From Glomus cerebriforme (lineage: Eukaryota; Glomeromycota; Glomeromycetes; Glomerales; Glomeraceae), in contig QKYT01000311.1 of assembly GCA_003550305.1 (NCBI GenBank), forward strand, positions 52,724 through 116,723: a stretch of DNA of 64,000 nt, given 5' to 3'. The notes beneath the pieces were generated by a model. The model saw only the letters and a list, made by a program, of their open reading frames with translations, ran no database searches and was not told the DNA's origin. Within the stretch, counting starts at the first letter, position 1; each line of letters opens with the position of its first letter. Made by a program: the position numbers and the translations under genes. Shown piece by piece: positions 1,167 to 60,684 of this stretch.

Positions 1167-3779
1167 GATAATATAACGCGTAAAGTCACTTGTAATAAAA
1201 AGATAAAAGATACAAGTGAATGAAAACTATAAAAGAACGGCTGACAACACAAGCATTTAATGGTCTTAGTGCTTGGAATAAATAAAAAAAATAATAATAA
1301 TGGTTAAAGATATCGAACCAAAGGACCTTGAGTACAAAGGACGAAGTGTAAAAAATGAAAAATCTCAGGTATTTAAATATTAAATCAAAATAAAATTTGA
1401 TCTTTTAACATATATCCAAAAAAAGACGATAATTTTTTTTTTCTGTTTCCGTTGTATGTTTGACTATTTTGACGATTCCAAAAATTCAGTGAACCTCTAT
1501 TATGTAAAAAAATGATCGGCGTAATTATAACTTCTATGCGCATGATTGTCGCACTAAAAGTAAGATTTAATTAATGCAAGGATAAAAAGTACCGTGTATC
1601 CGTGCAAATTTATCCAATTACTCTATCACGACGTAGTTTTGATCTACCATCGACTTTTTAGTTTAGACACGATGACCAAATAAAGAAATTGGAAACATGA
1701 CACACCATTTTGATAAATTTGATAAACATATATAAACACAATTATTTTTATTCGCTACGTGAGGAAGGATAATAAGTGGATAATATTATTGGCTAAATAT
1801 AAAAAAGGAAGTTGTTTGTTATCTTTTTTAATATGTTGTTCTATTACTTAGTTTGGTATATGCGAAAATACTTAAAATAGAAATCAAACCCGGTTCCAAA
1901 AAAACTTGCGAGACAATAATTGAATTTAACTGCATTACCAACATTTTAAAAGATTTTCTAATGATATACAAAAAAAAAGGTTGAGAAACTAATTATTTAA
2001 ACATGACATTTGAATACGTAAATTGATTGGCTGAAAAAAAATGATCCATTACGATTAAAGTTTTCTTTCTATCTTTTTGAATAAAAGATAAAAGATAAGA
2101 TAACCAAATTACATAAATTTTAGTGAGACTAAAATTGTAGATATCATACGCACGTTTTTGATTGTATGGAACGATATGAACAAAAGCATGTGTTCTAACT
2201 TGGACATTATTTTATTAAATTAGATCCGGAATTTTCTCTTTCTTGTTTATAAGGGTTAAAAGGAGTAAATAAATTAACATATGATGTCAATGAAATAAAG
2301 TTTTTAAAATTAATATGTTTGTTAATTGATCAATGGACCCATTGACTACACATCAGTGAATTGTAATGGTTTGATTTACGAAAATAATTGGCTAATTAAA
2401 AATTAATTACCGTAATAGTATATTTTGTATTTTGAAGTTAAAAGACAATCATTTCAAACTATAAGATCTGTTTAAAATTAGAGTATATCAACTTAAACCT
2501 ACTTTCTAATCTTTCTGTTTGCCAAACAAATTTCTAAATACTACATTTTATCATGATAAAACTATTTTTCTTTTTTTTAAAAAAAGAGTAAGGAGAAAAG
2601 AGATAATTTATCATATATCATATGAAAATGATTAACTAGATGCGAAATTTTTTACGTATCGAATAAAAAAACGTGAAAGAGCTCTTCTGCACCTAAACGG
2701 TGTTAAGGACTCGGTCTTCCGGAAGCTACCTTAATAGGTTCATTCCAAGTTATGACTTAGAAGAACTTCCTTTTAAGATATAGTGAATCTCCAGCCGAGA
2801 TGTCCTCTCAGCGATCCTAATACGAAATATTTTTTAATCCCCATTCAGAAATTGTTAAAGGTCTTACGGTTAAGAAAGTTTGAACATTCTTTAAAAACTA
2901 TATAAGGTTGTGTTCAATTGACAAGCACAACTGAGAAATTTATAGATACTTCGTATTTCTGAGCTGAATAACTGGCCCTTTAGCACTAATTCTGTTAAAT
3001 ACAATGGTTCCAAAAGTTCATCCAGCAATCACCCATTATGTAAATTATCCATTGTTGTAATGAATTTATTATATTATGGTTGTGATCTTTTGTTTTTGAC
3101 CATTTGACAGGTTATTATGTATAACAAAAGCTTTTTTTTTAAAGGATAAACACCTCATGCCAAATACCGCATTTGGAAAAATGCAAAAATTCTTGCTTGT
3201 GTTGGTCATTCGTTTTATCAACCAGTTAGTCCCGAGAATAGCAGATCAAACATTACGGTATATGTTTACGTATGTTACATTTTATAAAGCTGAGATTCCT
3301 GCAAGGTTTTAATGGAGCTTGAAAAAGATTTATCACAACAGTTAATTAAAGTTCAAAGATGGCCGGCTAATAGTGATTTGTAAGTTGGTTTTGATCTTAC
3401 TGAACAAGCAGAAATAGAATCACTTTTCTTAACGGTAAATTCATGCTACTTGCATAGTGAAGCAAATCATACCTTTAAAATTATTGATCACCACTCAAAT
3501 ATACTGTAACCAAAATATCATAGTGCAAGTTGAAATTACTATAAACGATTTTATAAGAATAAATAGTACACATAATTTAGGCCGGAGTTAAAAATTTGAC
3601 CAATATTTTAAAGTATAATAAATACCCAGTCGTGTAAACTAAGAATTGGTATTGCAAATTTAAGAGCATGAAATTTTTTTTTATTTCATTTAATTTATGT
3701 ATAAAAGGTTTTTTTTTATAATCAATTGAAAACAAATATTGAATAAAATTTTAGTGATTAAAATGTTTATATCCATAAC
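1167..3779. other. Intergenic region between two minus-strand genes; no supported gene
   Basis: This is the AT-rich upstream region of the SPX gene. A short open stretch begins at the ATG at 1301 (MVKDIEPKDLEYKGRS...) and runs to a possible donor CAG|GTATTT near 1369, but no partner exon is evident. At 2690-2830 there is a less AT-rich island (ACGGTGTTAAGGACTCGGTC and following) with no open frame and no tRNA fold that I can see. Around 3140-3440 short open stretches in several frames suggest an old broken gene, but I could not name it. Confidence 0.4.
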
Positions 3780-4449
3780 CTAAATCGGAACCTCAACATC
3801 ATCCACATCAATAAAATCTTTAAACCAACGTTCCTCTTCAGTGATAGAAATATCATTTGCGCTCATGTTCCGACGCTGCATAAGTCCTTGTTCGTTAAAT
3901 GTCCAATGTTCGATACCGTAGGCTGAGAAAAAAGCACGTTAGATCCTACTTAATTATAATAATAAAAGCACATGAAAATTGCTTACATACCACGATGCCA
4001 CTATAATCATAATTCAATGTAGATGAACAATTAATTAGTCCTCGTCCCCTTAACGAACAAAATTATGATATTAAACCATACTTACGTGCTCCTGATTATC
4101 ACGATATTCATACCAAAACTCCACCGCAATCTTATTATCCGTCCATGCGAACAACTCCTTCCTCAACCTATAATCCAACTCCTTTGACCATTTATCCTTC
4201 AAGAACTCAATGATTGATTCGTGCCCGATAAAGAACTTATCACGATTGCGCCAGCTTAAATAAGGTTAAGTGTCAATATTTTCACGTCAAACGTTGTAAA
4301 TTTAAGATAAAAAAAGATACGTACATAGAATCTTCAGTATAAGCATTAACAACCTTATATGGATCCTTAGTATTCCACAAATTTTGCGCATTTTTCACCT
4401 TCAAATTCGCAGTTTCCCTCGTAAAAGGTGGTACAATTGGTTGAGACAT
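3780..4449 (-). CDS. NTF2-like (SnoaL-fold) DUF1348 protein
   Basis: Four exons: 4449-4325, 4254-4086, 4000-3991 (10-nt microexon TGGCATCGTG) and 3922-3780. Together they give 148 residues with all junctions in phase. The product opens MSQPIVPPFTRETANLK. It carries WRNRDKFFIGHESIIEFLKD, KELDYRLRKELFAWTDNKIA, VEFWYEYRDNQEHWHRAYG and EHWTFNEQGLMQRRNMSAND, which together are the signature of the DUF1348 family of the nuclear transport factor 2-like fold. These are small cytosolic single-domain proteins without an established reaction. The length fits the family (about 150). The ATG at 4449 is the only one upstream of the conserved start. The microexon is required to supply the conserved W-x-R-x-YG segment. 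Confidence 0.93.
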
Positions 4450-7342
4450 AATTTTTTGCAGCTAACATTCTGTATGCGCAAATTTCTCGGGTTTATAAAT
4501 TCCCAATTTAGATTATCGGTTGGATTATCTTGTTTGGGTTAAGGCCATATCGATATCCCGAAAAAAAATCCTTTTTATTTGATCACTGTGTAATAAATGC
4601 ACGGTTCTTTCATGTGTCACAACTTTAGCCGAAGGTCATTGAAATAATCAGAAATAACAGCATACGTACGAAGATCAAGCGGTTCAGAATATCAAGTTTG
4701 AATTAGAAATTGTGAAGAAAATTAATTGTAAATAATATTCAACGATCCAAAATTATTCCGTGCCGATTGATTATTTTTTCTTAGATCTCATAATATCGAA
4801 AATTTAAATAAAAATTAAAAACAGCTGCGCGATAAGCAATTATTTATTACAAAGAATTATTAAAAAGTAAAAAATCATCCAAACCGATCCAGGAATTATT
4901 ATAAAAATATCTCGAAATAATAATGTGGTATCCACAAAATTTTTTCATTTTCCAGTAACTTCATAGTATCGTATCATGTCATTTTTTGAAACTAAAATAT
5001 ACTATAGAAGTTGGGCAGTTGGGCTTGGCATTTCATATAGAAATTACATGTGAGCAGTGGCCGATTGATTATTTGAATTTTAAATAGTTATTTCTGCTTT
5101 TAAAATAATACTAGAATAAAAAAGTCAGATATTCAGATTGCTGGACAATTTATCCTATAATCATCCAGTAATTAATTTTTATAATATATTTTTATAGAAT
5201 AGTATTATTTTAAAATAGTAATAATAATATAAACATTTAATTTTTTCTTTTTTTCTTTCAATTTTATTAAGAAAAAGTAACAGAAGTACATATATAAGAT
5301 TACAAAAAGAGAAAAAAGAAATTGAAATAAAATCTGATGAAACTAACCTTTTAAAATATGGATAAAACTAACCTATATTATAGTTAATCTATATCCAAAA
5401 AAAAATTTCCAAATAAAATAAACTATAAACACAACTAAAAAAATAATACATTAATATTAATATTTAAATGTATATTTGAAGGGATATAAGGACTATCTAT
5501 AAGTTTATATTTATATTTTTGTTTGGTATCTATATTATGAGATAATTTATTATAAAAGTATTACATCTAGGTATTCAAGTTGAATCCATAAATAAACAAT
5601 AAATTAAATAAAGAATATAGAAAATAACATTAAATAAATTTGGAAATAATAATAATATAAGCATTTAATAATATATAAATATATGATATTGCCATTTATA
5701 TAAAGTAAAAATGGTTAAAAATTTGTTAAAACTAAGGTAAAATTGCAAGAAATAAGAAAGAAGAATTTGTATTAGAATAATAAAAAATAGGAAAAAGATT
5801 TTTAGAGGCCAGATTGTATAAAGAATTATTAGAAAGAAAAAATATAATATAGTTTTAAGTAGAAAAGTATTAATAAGAATAAATAAATAATATTAAAAAA
5901 AGTCTAAAATTTTCATTAATAAGAGTAGTTGTTTTAGTTATAAAGTAAAAATAATCCTTAATTTAGTTTTATTTAGTTCAGAATGTAATGTAAAACTATT
6001 AAAAGCCAGAATCAGTAATACAAAATGTCTGTCTGTCTGCACTTATATGATGTGACATGATTGATTGTATTTGTTACACATAAAACTCATAATTATATAA
6101 CAGCTATTTATTTAAAATTAATAATTATCAAATCTATTATTCATTATTCATTTCATTAATACTTAAAGTATCATATGTAGTGTCTGCCAAAGGCAGGCCT
6201 TATATATGATTATTAATTGTAAGTTATATTTTAAAATCATGTTAGGAGGATAAAGAATTAGGATTATAGGATTAGAAGAATTAGGATTTAAAGGGTCAAG
6301 ATATCTGCTTCTCATATGTGGTAGCAAGTGTTGATCAAATATTAATCCCTTTAGACTCAATAACAATTGCTAAAAATACCTAGTTTTTAATATTAAGACT
6401 TAAGACAAGATTTTTTAAACTTGGTATATAAGAGATTGTATAATTAAATTTAGTAATAGTAATTTCTTTTCTACTCTAATTTACTGATAAACTTAAAAGT
6501 AACTTTATTAAATCATCAGTATTTCTTTAAGATTATGATATACTATATAAATATCTAAGAAAATTCTATAATGAAATTCATTTGTAATAAAATAAATATA
6601 TAGCTATTTATGTTTATAATAATATAAATAAATAATGTAATATATAAGTAGTATAATTTTTATTAATACAGTCTAAAGTTATGTATTTATAAATAAAATT
6701 TAAATAAAGTTTCACTTTAAATAATTTAAAAAAAATGATTAATCAGTTTTTTTAACTTTATATTATTAAATAAAATTATTATTATAAATACTTATTTAAT
6801 ATTTATATTTTAAATTAAAATAAAATAATTTATTATATATATTTTATTACATTTTAAATTTTAATAAGTACAAATTTTGATATTATTTATAATTAAATTA
6901 TATTTAAATATATTTTTATTAATTATTTTTTTAAGAAAGATTCTAAGAATATTTATTAAACTTTTATTTATAATTAATTTTAATTTATAAATTTCTCTCA
7001 CTTTCATTATATAAATACAACTTGTCAATACAGTCAACTCTTTATATATGCATGCATATATAGAAAGTATGCATTTATAGAGAAGTATAAACTTTATATT
7101 ATAAAATTGTTAAAATAATAAAAATATTATTTATTTAATTTTTATTATCATTTATTGTAATTCATTATTCTAAAACAAATAAAACAACTATTAATTAAAG
7201 TACTAATGTATAATAGTAGTTTGTGCTTATTTTCTTTTAATAAATTTTTCAATTATATCTACTAATTTCTAATTTTATATATTCATTTGCATTCTTTTGT
7301 TAAAAAACTATAGCTGCAGTACTTATATCAATACATTACATA
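4450..7342. repeat. AT-rich intergenic block, low complexity
   Basis: About 2.9 kb with no coding signal. It includes a short (TGTC)n microsatellite near 6025, degenerate GAATTAGGATT copies near 6255-6295, and a TATATGCATGCATATA palindrome near 7045. An open frame on the minus strand at 6163-6366 has no domain or codon bias and is treated as chance. Confidence 0.45.
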
Positions 7343-57710: not shown

Positions 57711-58058
57711 AATATTTTCATTTTTTTTTACTTAGAAATTTAATATTAATATGTCATCAATTCAACAAGTGGAATTTATCAATACTATTATTTATAAATA
57801 TGTCAAAACAAAAAAAATGGTTAAAGTTTAATAATTAAATTTTTATTATAGCTGGATAGTTTTATTTAAATTTTTTATTGCAGCTATATACTGTAACTTG
57901 TATTTATGTAGATTGTATAAAAATTTAATAAAATATTGTAAAAATTACATGATTTATATATTATATCATAATGAAATAGTATTTAATAAAATCATCAGAA
58001 ATGATGATTAGAAAAACTTATTTAATATATAATAATATATAACTTATCACTAATATTT

Positions 58059-60680
58059 GGGTGGACCTACAGCAAAAGGTGGGGCTTGGACCGATCACAT
58101 GATTTTGGGATTTTTTGATTTTTAGTTATTTATCAGTCTTGTTTTTATGGGAATAAAATTTTCCATTAGATATATTTAATAAAAAAGTTTACAATTAACC
58201 TTTTTTTTCTTTGTATTATTATTATAAATATCGTAAAAAAATGTAAATATTGCAAAATTAATTTTTAACAAAAATATGGAGTATGGTATTAATTCTATTA
58301 AAGATGATGCAAATAAAACTATTTTGACTGTTTTAGAAGACTTAGATAATACTTTTTTTAATAAACATTTATATTCTAAAGATAAAGAAGAATTTAGTTT
58401 TACACTAAATAATGATAATAATTCAAATTTAATAGATTTATCATTAAAATTAGCCAATACTCGTTTAGATAATTTTGAATTTGAAGAAAATCCTAATAGT
58501 TATTTATGTCAAAGATAAAGTTTATGATCAATTGAAATTAAAAGTTAATGAGTTTTTTAAAAAAGAAAAGTGTTCATGTCATTTTCCTAGTCAACCATAT
58601 TTTATGAAAATCAGTTATAAACAGTTTCTTGCATATCAAATTGAATTTGAAAGTTTGGACAAAAAAATGTGAAATATAGTAGTTAAAAGACAACTTATGG
58701 CCTTTCAAAAGAACGAAAATATAAGAAAGAATAGTGAAAATAGAAAATTTATATACTTTAATTATTATTATAATAATGATATTTTAATTTGTCATATAAT
58801 GTATGAAAATCTTATTGGAGTTAGTCATAAACATTTAGATATGATTATACAACACTTAAAAAAATATGGTATTGACAAAGCTCCAAAAAATATGAATTGC
58901 ATTGAAGTTAATTATAATGTAGCATATGATATATTTGCATTTTTAAAAAACTATTCAGATGTACATGGTATACCTTCACCCAGGCGGTATTGTAATGAAG
59001 TTATTATACTAATTGTATTTCTTCTAACTAGTTATAGCTATTCTTTAGTATATCGTGATTATGTGCAAGTTTATAAAAAAAAATATGAAACAGAAGGGTC
59101 AGAAGTTCATGTGATGATTAAACAAACTTTTATTAATATTTGAAAATCTTTAATTTCATCACTTCAATTTATGTCACCAAAATCTGATTTATGTAAAAAA
59201 TGTGAGTTAATGAAAATGGATATTTAATATATTACGTAACATGAGAAAAAAATGAAAACTACAGAAAATTACTTGGCCTATTTAAAGCGTGCACAGCAAG
59301 AATGAGATTATTATAATTCCAATATTACGCGCATAATTAAAAATGGCAGAAATAATCCTAATCCATCCAGATCTCAATCATTATTTAAAACATTTGAAGA
59401 ATATGCTCATATTGTATATAACTGGACCCAGAATGTGCAAATTCTATACTTACCACAGCAAGTAGGATCCTTATTTTTCAAAAGTTCATAAAAAATGCAT
59501 TTATTTGGTGTTTGTAATATTAGCAACTATCCTAATATACAACAGACCAATTATGTAATTGATGAAGATGAAATGCCCGATAATGGTAGGGTGTTAACTG
59601 TACATTAAGTTTGGTTTTACATGCAATTAAAAAATATAATTGTGAAGAAAAAAAATTAATTGTTGCATGTAATAATTGTATAGGGCAAAACAAAAACAAC
59701 TACTCCTTATTTTTTTATTCATGGCTAATTGATCATGATATATATAATGAAATAGAATTAAATTTTATAATACCTGAACACACAAAGTTTATTTGTGATA
59801 GGTATTTTGGTCTAATTAAAGTTTCTATAGAAAGAGTAAGGTGAATACTATAGATGATGTAGTTTCAATTATTAACTATTCTACTACAAATAATTTCAAT
59901 ATTGCTTAGCATTATTTAAATAGAAAAGATTTTTAGTATTACAATTTTAAAAATCATTTTCAAAAATTTAAAAAGTTACCTAATATCCAAAAATATCATC
60001 ATTTTTATTTTTCTTCACAACATTCCGAAGTTATCTTTTATAAAGGTAAACTTAAGATAATTATAAAAAAGCTACAATTCATACTATTTCTTATACTACC
60101 AATATTTTACCATTTACAATTTCTTTTAGATATCTTTTCTTAAAAAGACAAGAGGAATTGTATAAAAAAATTGCGCCCTATGTTGATTTACCCTTTCGTG
60201 AAATTACTTGCCCTAAACCCAAATAAAAATTAATTTAAAAATTTTTTTTATATAGTAAGACAAAATTTTCATTATTACGTATTTTTTAATTATAAAACTT
60301 ACATTTTTTATGGTTTTTACATTATAAAACTTATATTTTTTACATATAAAATATATAAAATAAAAATTTTTATTGTTGAAATTATAAAATTACGATTTTA
60401 TTAATTTGAAAAGTACCATTTCGAAATAAACAATTTTGTTATTTTTTTTTAAAGTTTATAAAGGTTATACTCTTACATATTCAATAATACAGGTAAAATA
60501 AAGTGTTAAATAGAAGCTAATATTCTTAAAATATTGCCTGTAAAATTTTTTTTTTTAAGTTATAAAAACCATTTTTAAGAAATCTGAAGTAATTAGGCAA
60601 AAATTATGTGAAAACTTTAACTGCGATTTTCTCAAAATCACATGACTATCTGAGCTCCACCTTTTGCTGTAAGTTTGCCC
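58059..60680 (+). mobile_element. 2.62-kb TIR DNA transposon, complete ends, 4-bp target duplication
   Basis: The left end GGGTGGACCTACAGCAAAAG and the right end (reverse strand) GGGCAAACTTACAGCAAAAG match for about 52 bases, including AAAGGTGGRGCT and TCACATGATTTTGGGA versus TCATGTGATTTTGAGA. ATTT stands immediately outside both ends (58055-58058 and 60681-60684), consistent with a 4-bp target-site duplication. The interior carries one plus-strand gene (58276-60225). The termini do not match Tc1/mariner, hAT or MULE ends that I know. Confidence 0.78.
58276..60225 (+). pseudogene. Transposase-like gene of the DUF7869-type family, inactivated
   Basis: It starts MEYGINSIKDDANKTILTVL (58276), with a frame change near 58500. 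It continues KCSCHFPSQPYFMKISYKQF, then after a TGA at ~58671 (Trp-like site) FIYFNYYYNNDILICHIMYE, LIGVSHKHLDMIIQHLKKYG and YDIFAFLKNYSDVHGIPSPR. FMSPKSDLCKKCELMKMDI (59170) carries a C-x2-C. The core ACNNCIGQNKNNYSLFFYSW (59670) and IPEHTKFICDRYFGLIKVS (59770) is the hallmark of widespread uncharacterised arthropod/fungal proteins (CDNCSGQNKN ... PGHTKF..D..FG), thought to be RNase H-like transposases. The C-terminus KKIAPYVDLPFREITCPKPK ends at 60225. Few stops (about ten) and intact ends suggest fairly recent death. Family naming is from memory. Confidence 0.68.
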
Positions 60681-60684
60681 ATTT

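What the first reader, a model, noticed from the sequence alone, without database searches (positions are those of the whole stretch)
58059..60680. Complete 2.62-kb TIR transposon carrying a DUF7869-like gene
Seen directly: ~52-bp inverted ends beginning GGGYRRACYTACAGCAAAAG and ATTT on both sides as a 4-bp target duplication, around a single gene with the C-x-GQNKN ... EHTKF..DR.FG signature. That protein family is widespread but, as far as I know, poorly characterised. A bounded copy ties it to defined termini and target-site length, which could define a DNA-transposon superfamily or lineage in early-diverging fungi.
Basis: partly seen in the sequence, partly recalled or inferred. Interest (0 to 1): 0.78.

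Follow-up and report, generated by a model that had tools for sequence, protein, structure and literature searches.

The report
Decayed Sola-like transposon with bacterial kin
The stretch is a real but decayed jumping gene of an arbuscular mycorrhizal fungus; its enzyme family, listed in databases as 'function unknown', is very probably a cut-and-paste transposase whose relatives in bacteria carry similar DNA ends.

Summary
Window 58059-60680 is a 2,622-bp element with ~52-bp inverted ends and a 4-bp ATTT duplication. Of 12 two-ended copies in its genome (window included), 11 carry an exact 4-bp duplication, none at 3 or 5 bp. Gene-less 403-406 bp derivatives and empty-site-like sequences exist. 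The window copy is dead: frame changes, stops, two of three predicted catalytic aspartates lost. Relatives show conserved D-D-D and a predicted RNase H fold resembling DDE integrases and transposases. So PF25273/DUF7869 is very probably the element's own transposase. It is not a fungal invention: 10 bacterial loci encode it, and all 13 ends recognised in seven of them share the fungal register (G-tip, AAAA at 16-19) next to ANNT; only 2 of 6 two-ended bacterial copies have an exact duplication. DDD transposase, 4-bp AWWT duplications and a bacteria-to-animal range fit the Sola superfamily, Sola2 in particular; no reference Sola protein was available for a direct test. Verdict: new member of a known kind, probably Sola2.

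The parts
58055..58058 (.). left copy of the 4-bp target-site duplication, ATTT
58059..58110 (+). left terminal inverted repeat (GGG start, CAAAA at positions 15-19)
58276..60211 (+). transposase pseudogene (DUF7869 family): similarity to relatives in pieces 58276-58506, 58505-59650, 59590-59823, 59823-60041 and 60056-60211 in changing frames, with in-frame stops
   Evidence: one search counts 26 stops in one match that runs across frame changes, so many of those are out of frame
59420..59422 (+). place of predicted catalytic Asp 1 (D384 of P0002), Asn in this copy
   Evidence: position read by eye
59590..59841 (+). open piece that matches Pfam PF25273 (DUF7869), E 1.1e-13
59671..59673 (+). 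place of predicted catalytic Asp 2 (D471 of P0002; motif DNCxGQNKN), Asn in this copy
   Evidence: position read by eye
59797..59799 (+). place of predicted catalytic Asp 3 (D513 of P0002; motif GHTKFxxD), kept in this copy
   Evidence: position read by eye
60629..60680 (-). right terminal inverted repeat
60681..60684 (.). right copy of the 4-bp target-site duplication, ATTT

Best explanation
The element is a cut-and-paste DNA transposon. Its single recognised gene encoded a ~640-660-aa transposase with a mostly helical N-terminal region and an RNase H-like catalytic domain carrying a D-D-D triad, followed by a short beta-rich part. Inferred steps: the transposase binds the ~52-bp ends (conserved G-tip and AAAA block at positions 16-19), synapses them, cuts the element out at the boundary with ANNT and joins its 3' ends to the two strands of an AT-rich ANNT target four bases apart; host repair then leaves the 4-bp duplication. 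Internally deleted copies that keep both ends were moved in trans. Shown here: the ends, the 4-bp duplications, the derivatives, sequences like the empty site, the conserved triad and the predicted fold. Not shown: any biochemical activity. The window copy itself is a relic that could move only in trans, if at all. The most likely published home is the Sola superfamily, Sola2 group (my estimate about 0.65).
Against: Foldseek with the fungal model found nothing better than E 0.035; its top hit is an Argonaute MID-PIWI domain, not a transposase. The Foldseek hits of the bacterial model have low whole-chain TM-scores (0.13-0.23 for the three quoted). Only 2 of 6 two-ended bacterial copies have an exact duplication; the other four have A..T on both sides but different middle bases. 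One fungal copy (L033) has ATGT/ATAT. Empty-site junctions were read from alignment spans only, as the letters could not be fetched. Against the Sola2 label: one classification (PMC3985635, passage) places Sola in a clade with RNase H1, whereas the best structural matches here are integrases, Mos1 and Tns-type transposases. No activity data.
Confidence: 0.9

Rival explanations
1. Same mechanism, but the DUF7869 elements form a superfamily of their own that is not Sola and has not been named.
For: No transposase family of Pfam or NCBIfam was matched better than E 0.0015 (DDE_Tnp_ISAZ013, in 4 of 52 members). Pfam still calls the family DUF7869, and no held paper contains that name. One classification puts Sola with RNase H1 (PMC3985635 passage).
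Against: Every published Sola hallmark that could be tested here is met: DDD, 4-bp duplications, AWWT preference, size, TIR length, presence in bacteria and metazoa (criteria; results).
Confidence: 0.3
2. DUF7869 is a passenger nuclease and the element is moved by an unrelated transposase acting on its ends.
For: Activity was not tested, and the 403-406 bp copies show that movement in trans is possible.
Against: It is the only long frame that I recognised as a gene in elements of 2.06-2.7 kb of bacteria and about 2.4-2.9 kb of the fungus; ends and protein go together across very distant hosts; the predicted fold is that of DDE transposases.
Confidence: 0.03
3. The inverted ends and ATTT are a chance pairing in AT-rich DNA around an ordinary gene.
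For: The window is AT-rich, ATTT alone is a weak signal, and the 15-mer scan with mismatches is not significant alone.
Against: Same ends and 4-bp duplications in 11 of 12 copies, none at neighbouring lengths; sequences resembling the empty sites.
Confidence: 0.01

Closest known systems
Sola superfamily, Sola2 group (eukaryotic DNA transposons)
   Same: DDD transposase, 4-bp duplications, AT-rich AWWT targets (ATAT, AAAT, ATTT are named for dictyostelid Sola2 in PMC3627910, passages read), size 2-9 kb, TIRs 11-1124 bp, range including bacteria and metazoa (PMC10741241, passages).
   Different: The dictyostelid Sola2 elements have short TIRs (12-21 bp), an 888-aa transposase and Fanzor1 cargo; here TIRs are ~52 bp in the fungus, the protein ~660 aa, and no cargo was seen. 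No direct protein comparison was possible.
Pfam PF25273 (DUF7869)
   Same: 52 of 52 members of A3 match it (they were gathered by homology to such proteins). The profile covers roughly the second half of the catalytic domain and what follows.
   Different: Pfam gives no function; the data here assign it to a DDD transposase.
Tns-type transposases, MuA, retroviral integrases and Mos1 (solved DDE enzymes)
   Same: RNase H-like catalytic domain.
   Different: No sequence relationship detected in PDB sequence searches; other termini and duplication lengths (recalled).
ISAZ013 / Zator (PF07592, DDE_Tnp_ISAZ013)
   Same: Weak profile match in 4 of 52 members (best E 0.0015).
   Different: Below the curated cut-off in the one protein whose score was shown (12.9 against 26.9 bits); its link to Zator and Zator's 3-bp duplications are recalled.

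Membership tests
Sola superfamily | transposase with a DDD triad in an RNase H-like domain | tested here: met
   Three conserved Asp at RNase H positions in two predicted models; prediction only, no biochemistry
Sola superfamily | 4-bp target-site duplications | tested here: met
   11 of 12 two-ended fungal copies, plus L063 and L064 read by eye; bacterial copies 2 of 6 exact
Sola superfamily | element mostly 2-9 kb, TIR 11-1124 bp | tested here: met
   Nine gene-bearing fungal copies with an exact duplication are 2,440-2,674 bp; L033 (mismatched duplication) 2,860 and L037 3,481 bp; six bacterial copies 2,056-2,715 bp (ends); criterion from PMC10741241 passages
Sola superfamily | transposase homologous to the reference Sola1, Sola2 or Sola3 transposases | not testable with these tools
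   Two reference papers not held; no family named Sola among the Pfam and NCBIfam matches; look-ups in supplementary files are capped at 0
Sola2 group | AT-rich 4-bp target AWWT | tested here: met
   Of 13 exact fungal duplications 12 fit AWWT (ATAT 8, ATTT 3, AAAT 1) and one is AAGT; criterion from PMC3627910 passages
PF25273 (DUF7869) | profile match over the curated cut-off | tested here: met
   Window piece 51.6 bits against a cut-off of 26; seven relatives whose scores were shown 66.9-89.4 bits
piggyBac / Kolobok | TTAA duplications | tested here: not met
   No TTAA among 12 copies; criterion from PMC9587614 passage
Tc1/mariner | 2-bp TA duplication | tested here: not met
   Duplications are 4 bp, mostly AWWT; criterion from PMC10741241 passage

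The most novel reading that the evidence does not exclude
DUF7869 elements are a superfamily separate from Sola and every other named one, exchanged between bacteria and eukaryotes, in which enzyme, end architecture (G-tip, AAAA at positions 16-19) and ANNT target choice have stayed locked together across the domain boundary.
Probability: 0.27. Interest if true: 0.72.

Novelty: new member of a known kind. Interest (0 to 1): 0.55.

Why it matters
It turns a widespread 'domain of unknown function' (PF25273) into a testable transposase with defined ends, target and triad, so that many 'hypothetical proteins' in glomeromycete, mollusc, sponge and environmental data sets can be recognised as probable transposons. 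It gives a concrete terminal signature for finding gene-less copies. It also shows fungal and bacterial elements with the same end register, which makes the question of transfer between domains testable. If it is Sola2, PF25273 becomes a Pfam handle for that group.

Tried and rejected
Chance inverted repeat: rejected by the copy comparison. Passenger gene: disfavoured (see rivals). PDB sequence searches with one protein and with an alignment gave nothing. NCBIfam gave only one sub-threshold match, to an unrelated family, and PHROGs none. No relatives confirmed in IMG/VR viral contigs (61 stretches matched a pattern), in plasmids or in phages (bacterial protein only). Searches of the held papers for DUF7869 (0 papers) and GQNKN (5 papers, unrelated by title and abstract) gave no prior name for the family; the library lacks most subscription papers, so this does not show absence from print. 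Passages on Sola in three further papers gave no sequence or motif to compare (the one in 106 is an author's name).

The 15-mer scan of the window is not significant alone and is not used as evidence. Non-exact bacterial duplications: I considered a 2-bp AT duplication, which fits four of the six but fails L046 and L047, whose exact duplications are AAAT and AATT. In L048 the left flank holds a frame that looks by eye like an IS3-type transposase, cut off at the element, with no frame running on at the right, so a later deletion or rearrangement is a likely reason there. Not resolved for the other three.

Rows dropped before counts: of 17 loci fetched (16 gene places and one end-only place), six (L025, L026, L031, L032, L035, L036) lack one or both recognisable ends and are not in the 12-copy count. 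Of 10 bacterial loci, L051 has one recognised end and L049, L052 and L054 none. In one search the right end of L064 was set one base short, so its row (TATG) and register are off by one; its duplication (ATAT) was read by eye.

Full report
WHAT IS IN THE WINDOW. Positions 58059-60680 (2,622 bp) form an element whose two ends are imperfect inverted repeats, about 78% alike over 46 columns and recognisable for about 52 bp. ATTT stands directly outside both ends. Between them lies a decayed gene. Pfam PF25273 (DUF7869) matches the open piece 59590-59841 with 51.6 bits (cut-off 26, E 1.1e-13). Against relatives the coding region falls into pieces in changing frames with in-frame stops; one match counts 26 stops, but it runs across frame changes. 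Two of the three predicted catalytic aspartates are asparagine here.

OTHER COPIES. The window's genome (112.5 Mb, 1,117 contigs) shows 17 places over the PF25273 cut-off, the window included (a lower bound), and 75 matched stretches to a relative's protein. Contig C416 has the same length (133,735 bases) as the contig of protein P0114, labelled Glomus cerebriforme, so the genome is probably Rhizophagus (Glomus) cerebriforme; this is inference. I fetched 17 loci, the 16 other gene places and one place known by its end only; 11 of them plus the window have both ends. Eleven of these 12 have an exact 4-bp duplication: ATAT in six (L022, L023, L029, L030, L034, L038), ATTT in three (L024, L027, window), AAAT (L028) and AAGT (L037). 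L033 has ATGT/ATAT. Lengths 3, 5, 7 and 8 give 0 of 12; cross-copy pairings match at 4 bp in 42 of 132, because ATAT is common; permutation 10 of 100,000. Three copies of 403-406 bp (L038, L063, L064) keep both ends and all three are flanked by ATAT; L038 aligns with the two ends of L024 and lacks its middle. The window's closest copy is L037 at 90% identity, elsewhere in the genome and with a different duplication (AAGT), so these are separate insertions.

EMPTY SITES. The flanks of L022, joined with one copy of ATAT, match a dispersed repeat end to end at many places (66 rows listed; 974 candidates, of which 40 were scored), e.g. C440 over 220 bases at 87%. The joined flanks of L027 match C347 (84%), C989 (79%) and C682 (73%) across the junction. 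L027's own flanks return as two hits that overlap by four query bases, the duplication.

BACTERIAL RELATIVES. A scan of GTDB species genomes found 10 loci; nine cover most of the query at 29-37% identity, one is partial. They include the isolate Desulfocicer vacuolatum DSM 3385 (147.8-kb contig) and a 48-kb contig of Desulfobacterales HSG2, so they are not simply eukaryotic contamination. The family is rare there: 7 of 389 genomes in the class of the Desulfocicer genome, two of them only with distant lineages; 1 of 369 over the cut-off in the class of the Thiomargarita genome, plus one weak match below it; 1 of 395 in the phylum of the Nitrospirales genome. In the last two the one strong match is the genome I started from. 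Six loci have both ends, one has one end, three have none that I recognised. Of 13 bacterial ends 12 begin GGGG and one GGCG, and all 13 carry AAAA at exactly positions 16-19. Of 28 fungal ends 22 have AAAA at 16-19, the rest being shifted by one or two bases or altered; G stands in 26-27 of 28 at positions 1-3 and in 16 of 28 at position 4. The flank reads A..T at 13 of 13 bacterial and 27 of 28 fungal ends, the exception being the end that I set one base short. Two of six bacterial copies (L046 AAAT, L047 AATT) have an exact 4-bp duplication; four (L045, L048, L050, L053) do not. In L048 the left flank holds a frame that looks like an IS3-type transposase, cut off at the element with no continuation at the right, which suggests a later rearrangement there. 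In a tree of 43 proteins the seven glomeromycete rows form one group with four environmental ones (100/99), while bacteria and animals each need three changes: the sponge Ephydatia groups with two bacterial lineages (99/97). Two bacterial rows have very long branches and an unsure place. This fits old exchange between domains but does not date or direct it.

HOW IT WORKS. Most likely the protein is a DDD transposase that binds both ends, cuts the element out and inserts it by a four-base staggered attack at ANNT; the duplication follows from gap repair. Binding, cutting and joining are inferred from general knowledge of DDE enzymes. Trans-mobilised deletion derivatives are inferred from the three short copies.

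WHAT IT IS CALLED. Published descriptions that I read in passages: Sola elements encode a DDD transposase, make 4-bp duplications, are mostly 2-9 kb with TIRs of 11-1124 bp, and occur in bacteria and metazoa (PMC10741241); Sola2 of dictyostelids inserts at AWWT, with ATAT, AAAT and ATTT named (PMC3627910); Sola-1 and Sola-2 families are reported in R. irregularis (PMC11075540). Against it, one classification puts Sola in a clade with RNase H1 (PMC3985635, passage), while the best structural matches here are integrases and other transposases. The features that could be tested are met, and 12 of 13 exact fungal duplications fit AWWT. The defining test, homology to a reference Sola transposase, could not be run: two reference papers are not held and no library match bears that name. 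I therefore say 'works as a DDD cut-and-paste transposon' with 0.9 and 'is Sola2' with about 0.65.

NOVELTY. The element as such is ordinary: an old, low-copy, decaying DNA transposon. What is useful is the assignment of DUF7869 as a probable transposase and the terminal register shared between fungi and bacteria. I found no held paper that contains the name DUF7869; with the library's gaps this is not proof of absence.

Noticed in passing
window 58059-60680 against L037, L027, L029: Decay is almost purely by transitions: of 108 changes special to the window copy (1,802 columns) 79 are C>T or G>A and only 2 are transversions, in every CpN context, highest in CpG (4 of 13) and CpA (44 of 175). 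This looks like deamination or a RIP-like process.
   Followed up: partly
L048 4262-4792: The Desulfocicer element abuts a frame that looks by eye like an IS3-type transposase and stops at the element's left end, with no continuation on the right.
   Followed up: partly
L045, L048, L050, L053: Four of six two-ended bacterial copies keep A..T next to both ends but lack an exact 4-bp duplication.
   Followed up: partly
proteins P0044 and P0090: Proteins labelled as from Nitrososphaeraceae archaeon MAGs; P0044 groups inside the glomeromycete clade in the tree (P0090 was not in it), so they are probably fungal contigs binned by mistake.
   Followed up: partly
homolog lists: For many environmental members the longest contig is 2.0-2.4 kb, about the length of one bacterial element, as expected of a repeated mobile element in assemblies. 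Not counted.
   Followed up: no
L057 and L059: Two very distant bacterial DUF7869 proteins (731 and 659 aa frames) with altered motifs (DNGPTNKN, DNCRGHNKN); a motif scan did not show their element ends.
   Followed up: partly
L037 (element 3136-6616): This closest copy of the window element is 3,481 bp, about 0.85 kb longer; probably a nested insertion.
   Followed up: no
L053 205-290 and 2834-2919: The ends of this bacterial element repeat a block like CAAAACGTACCTATC, possibly two transposase binding sites per end.
   Followed up: no
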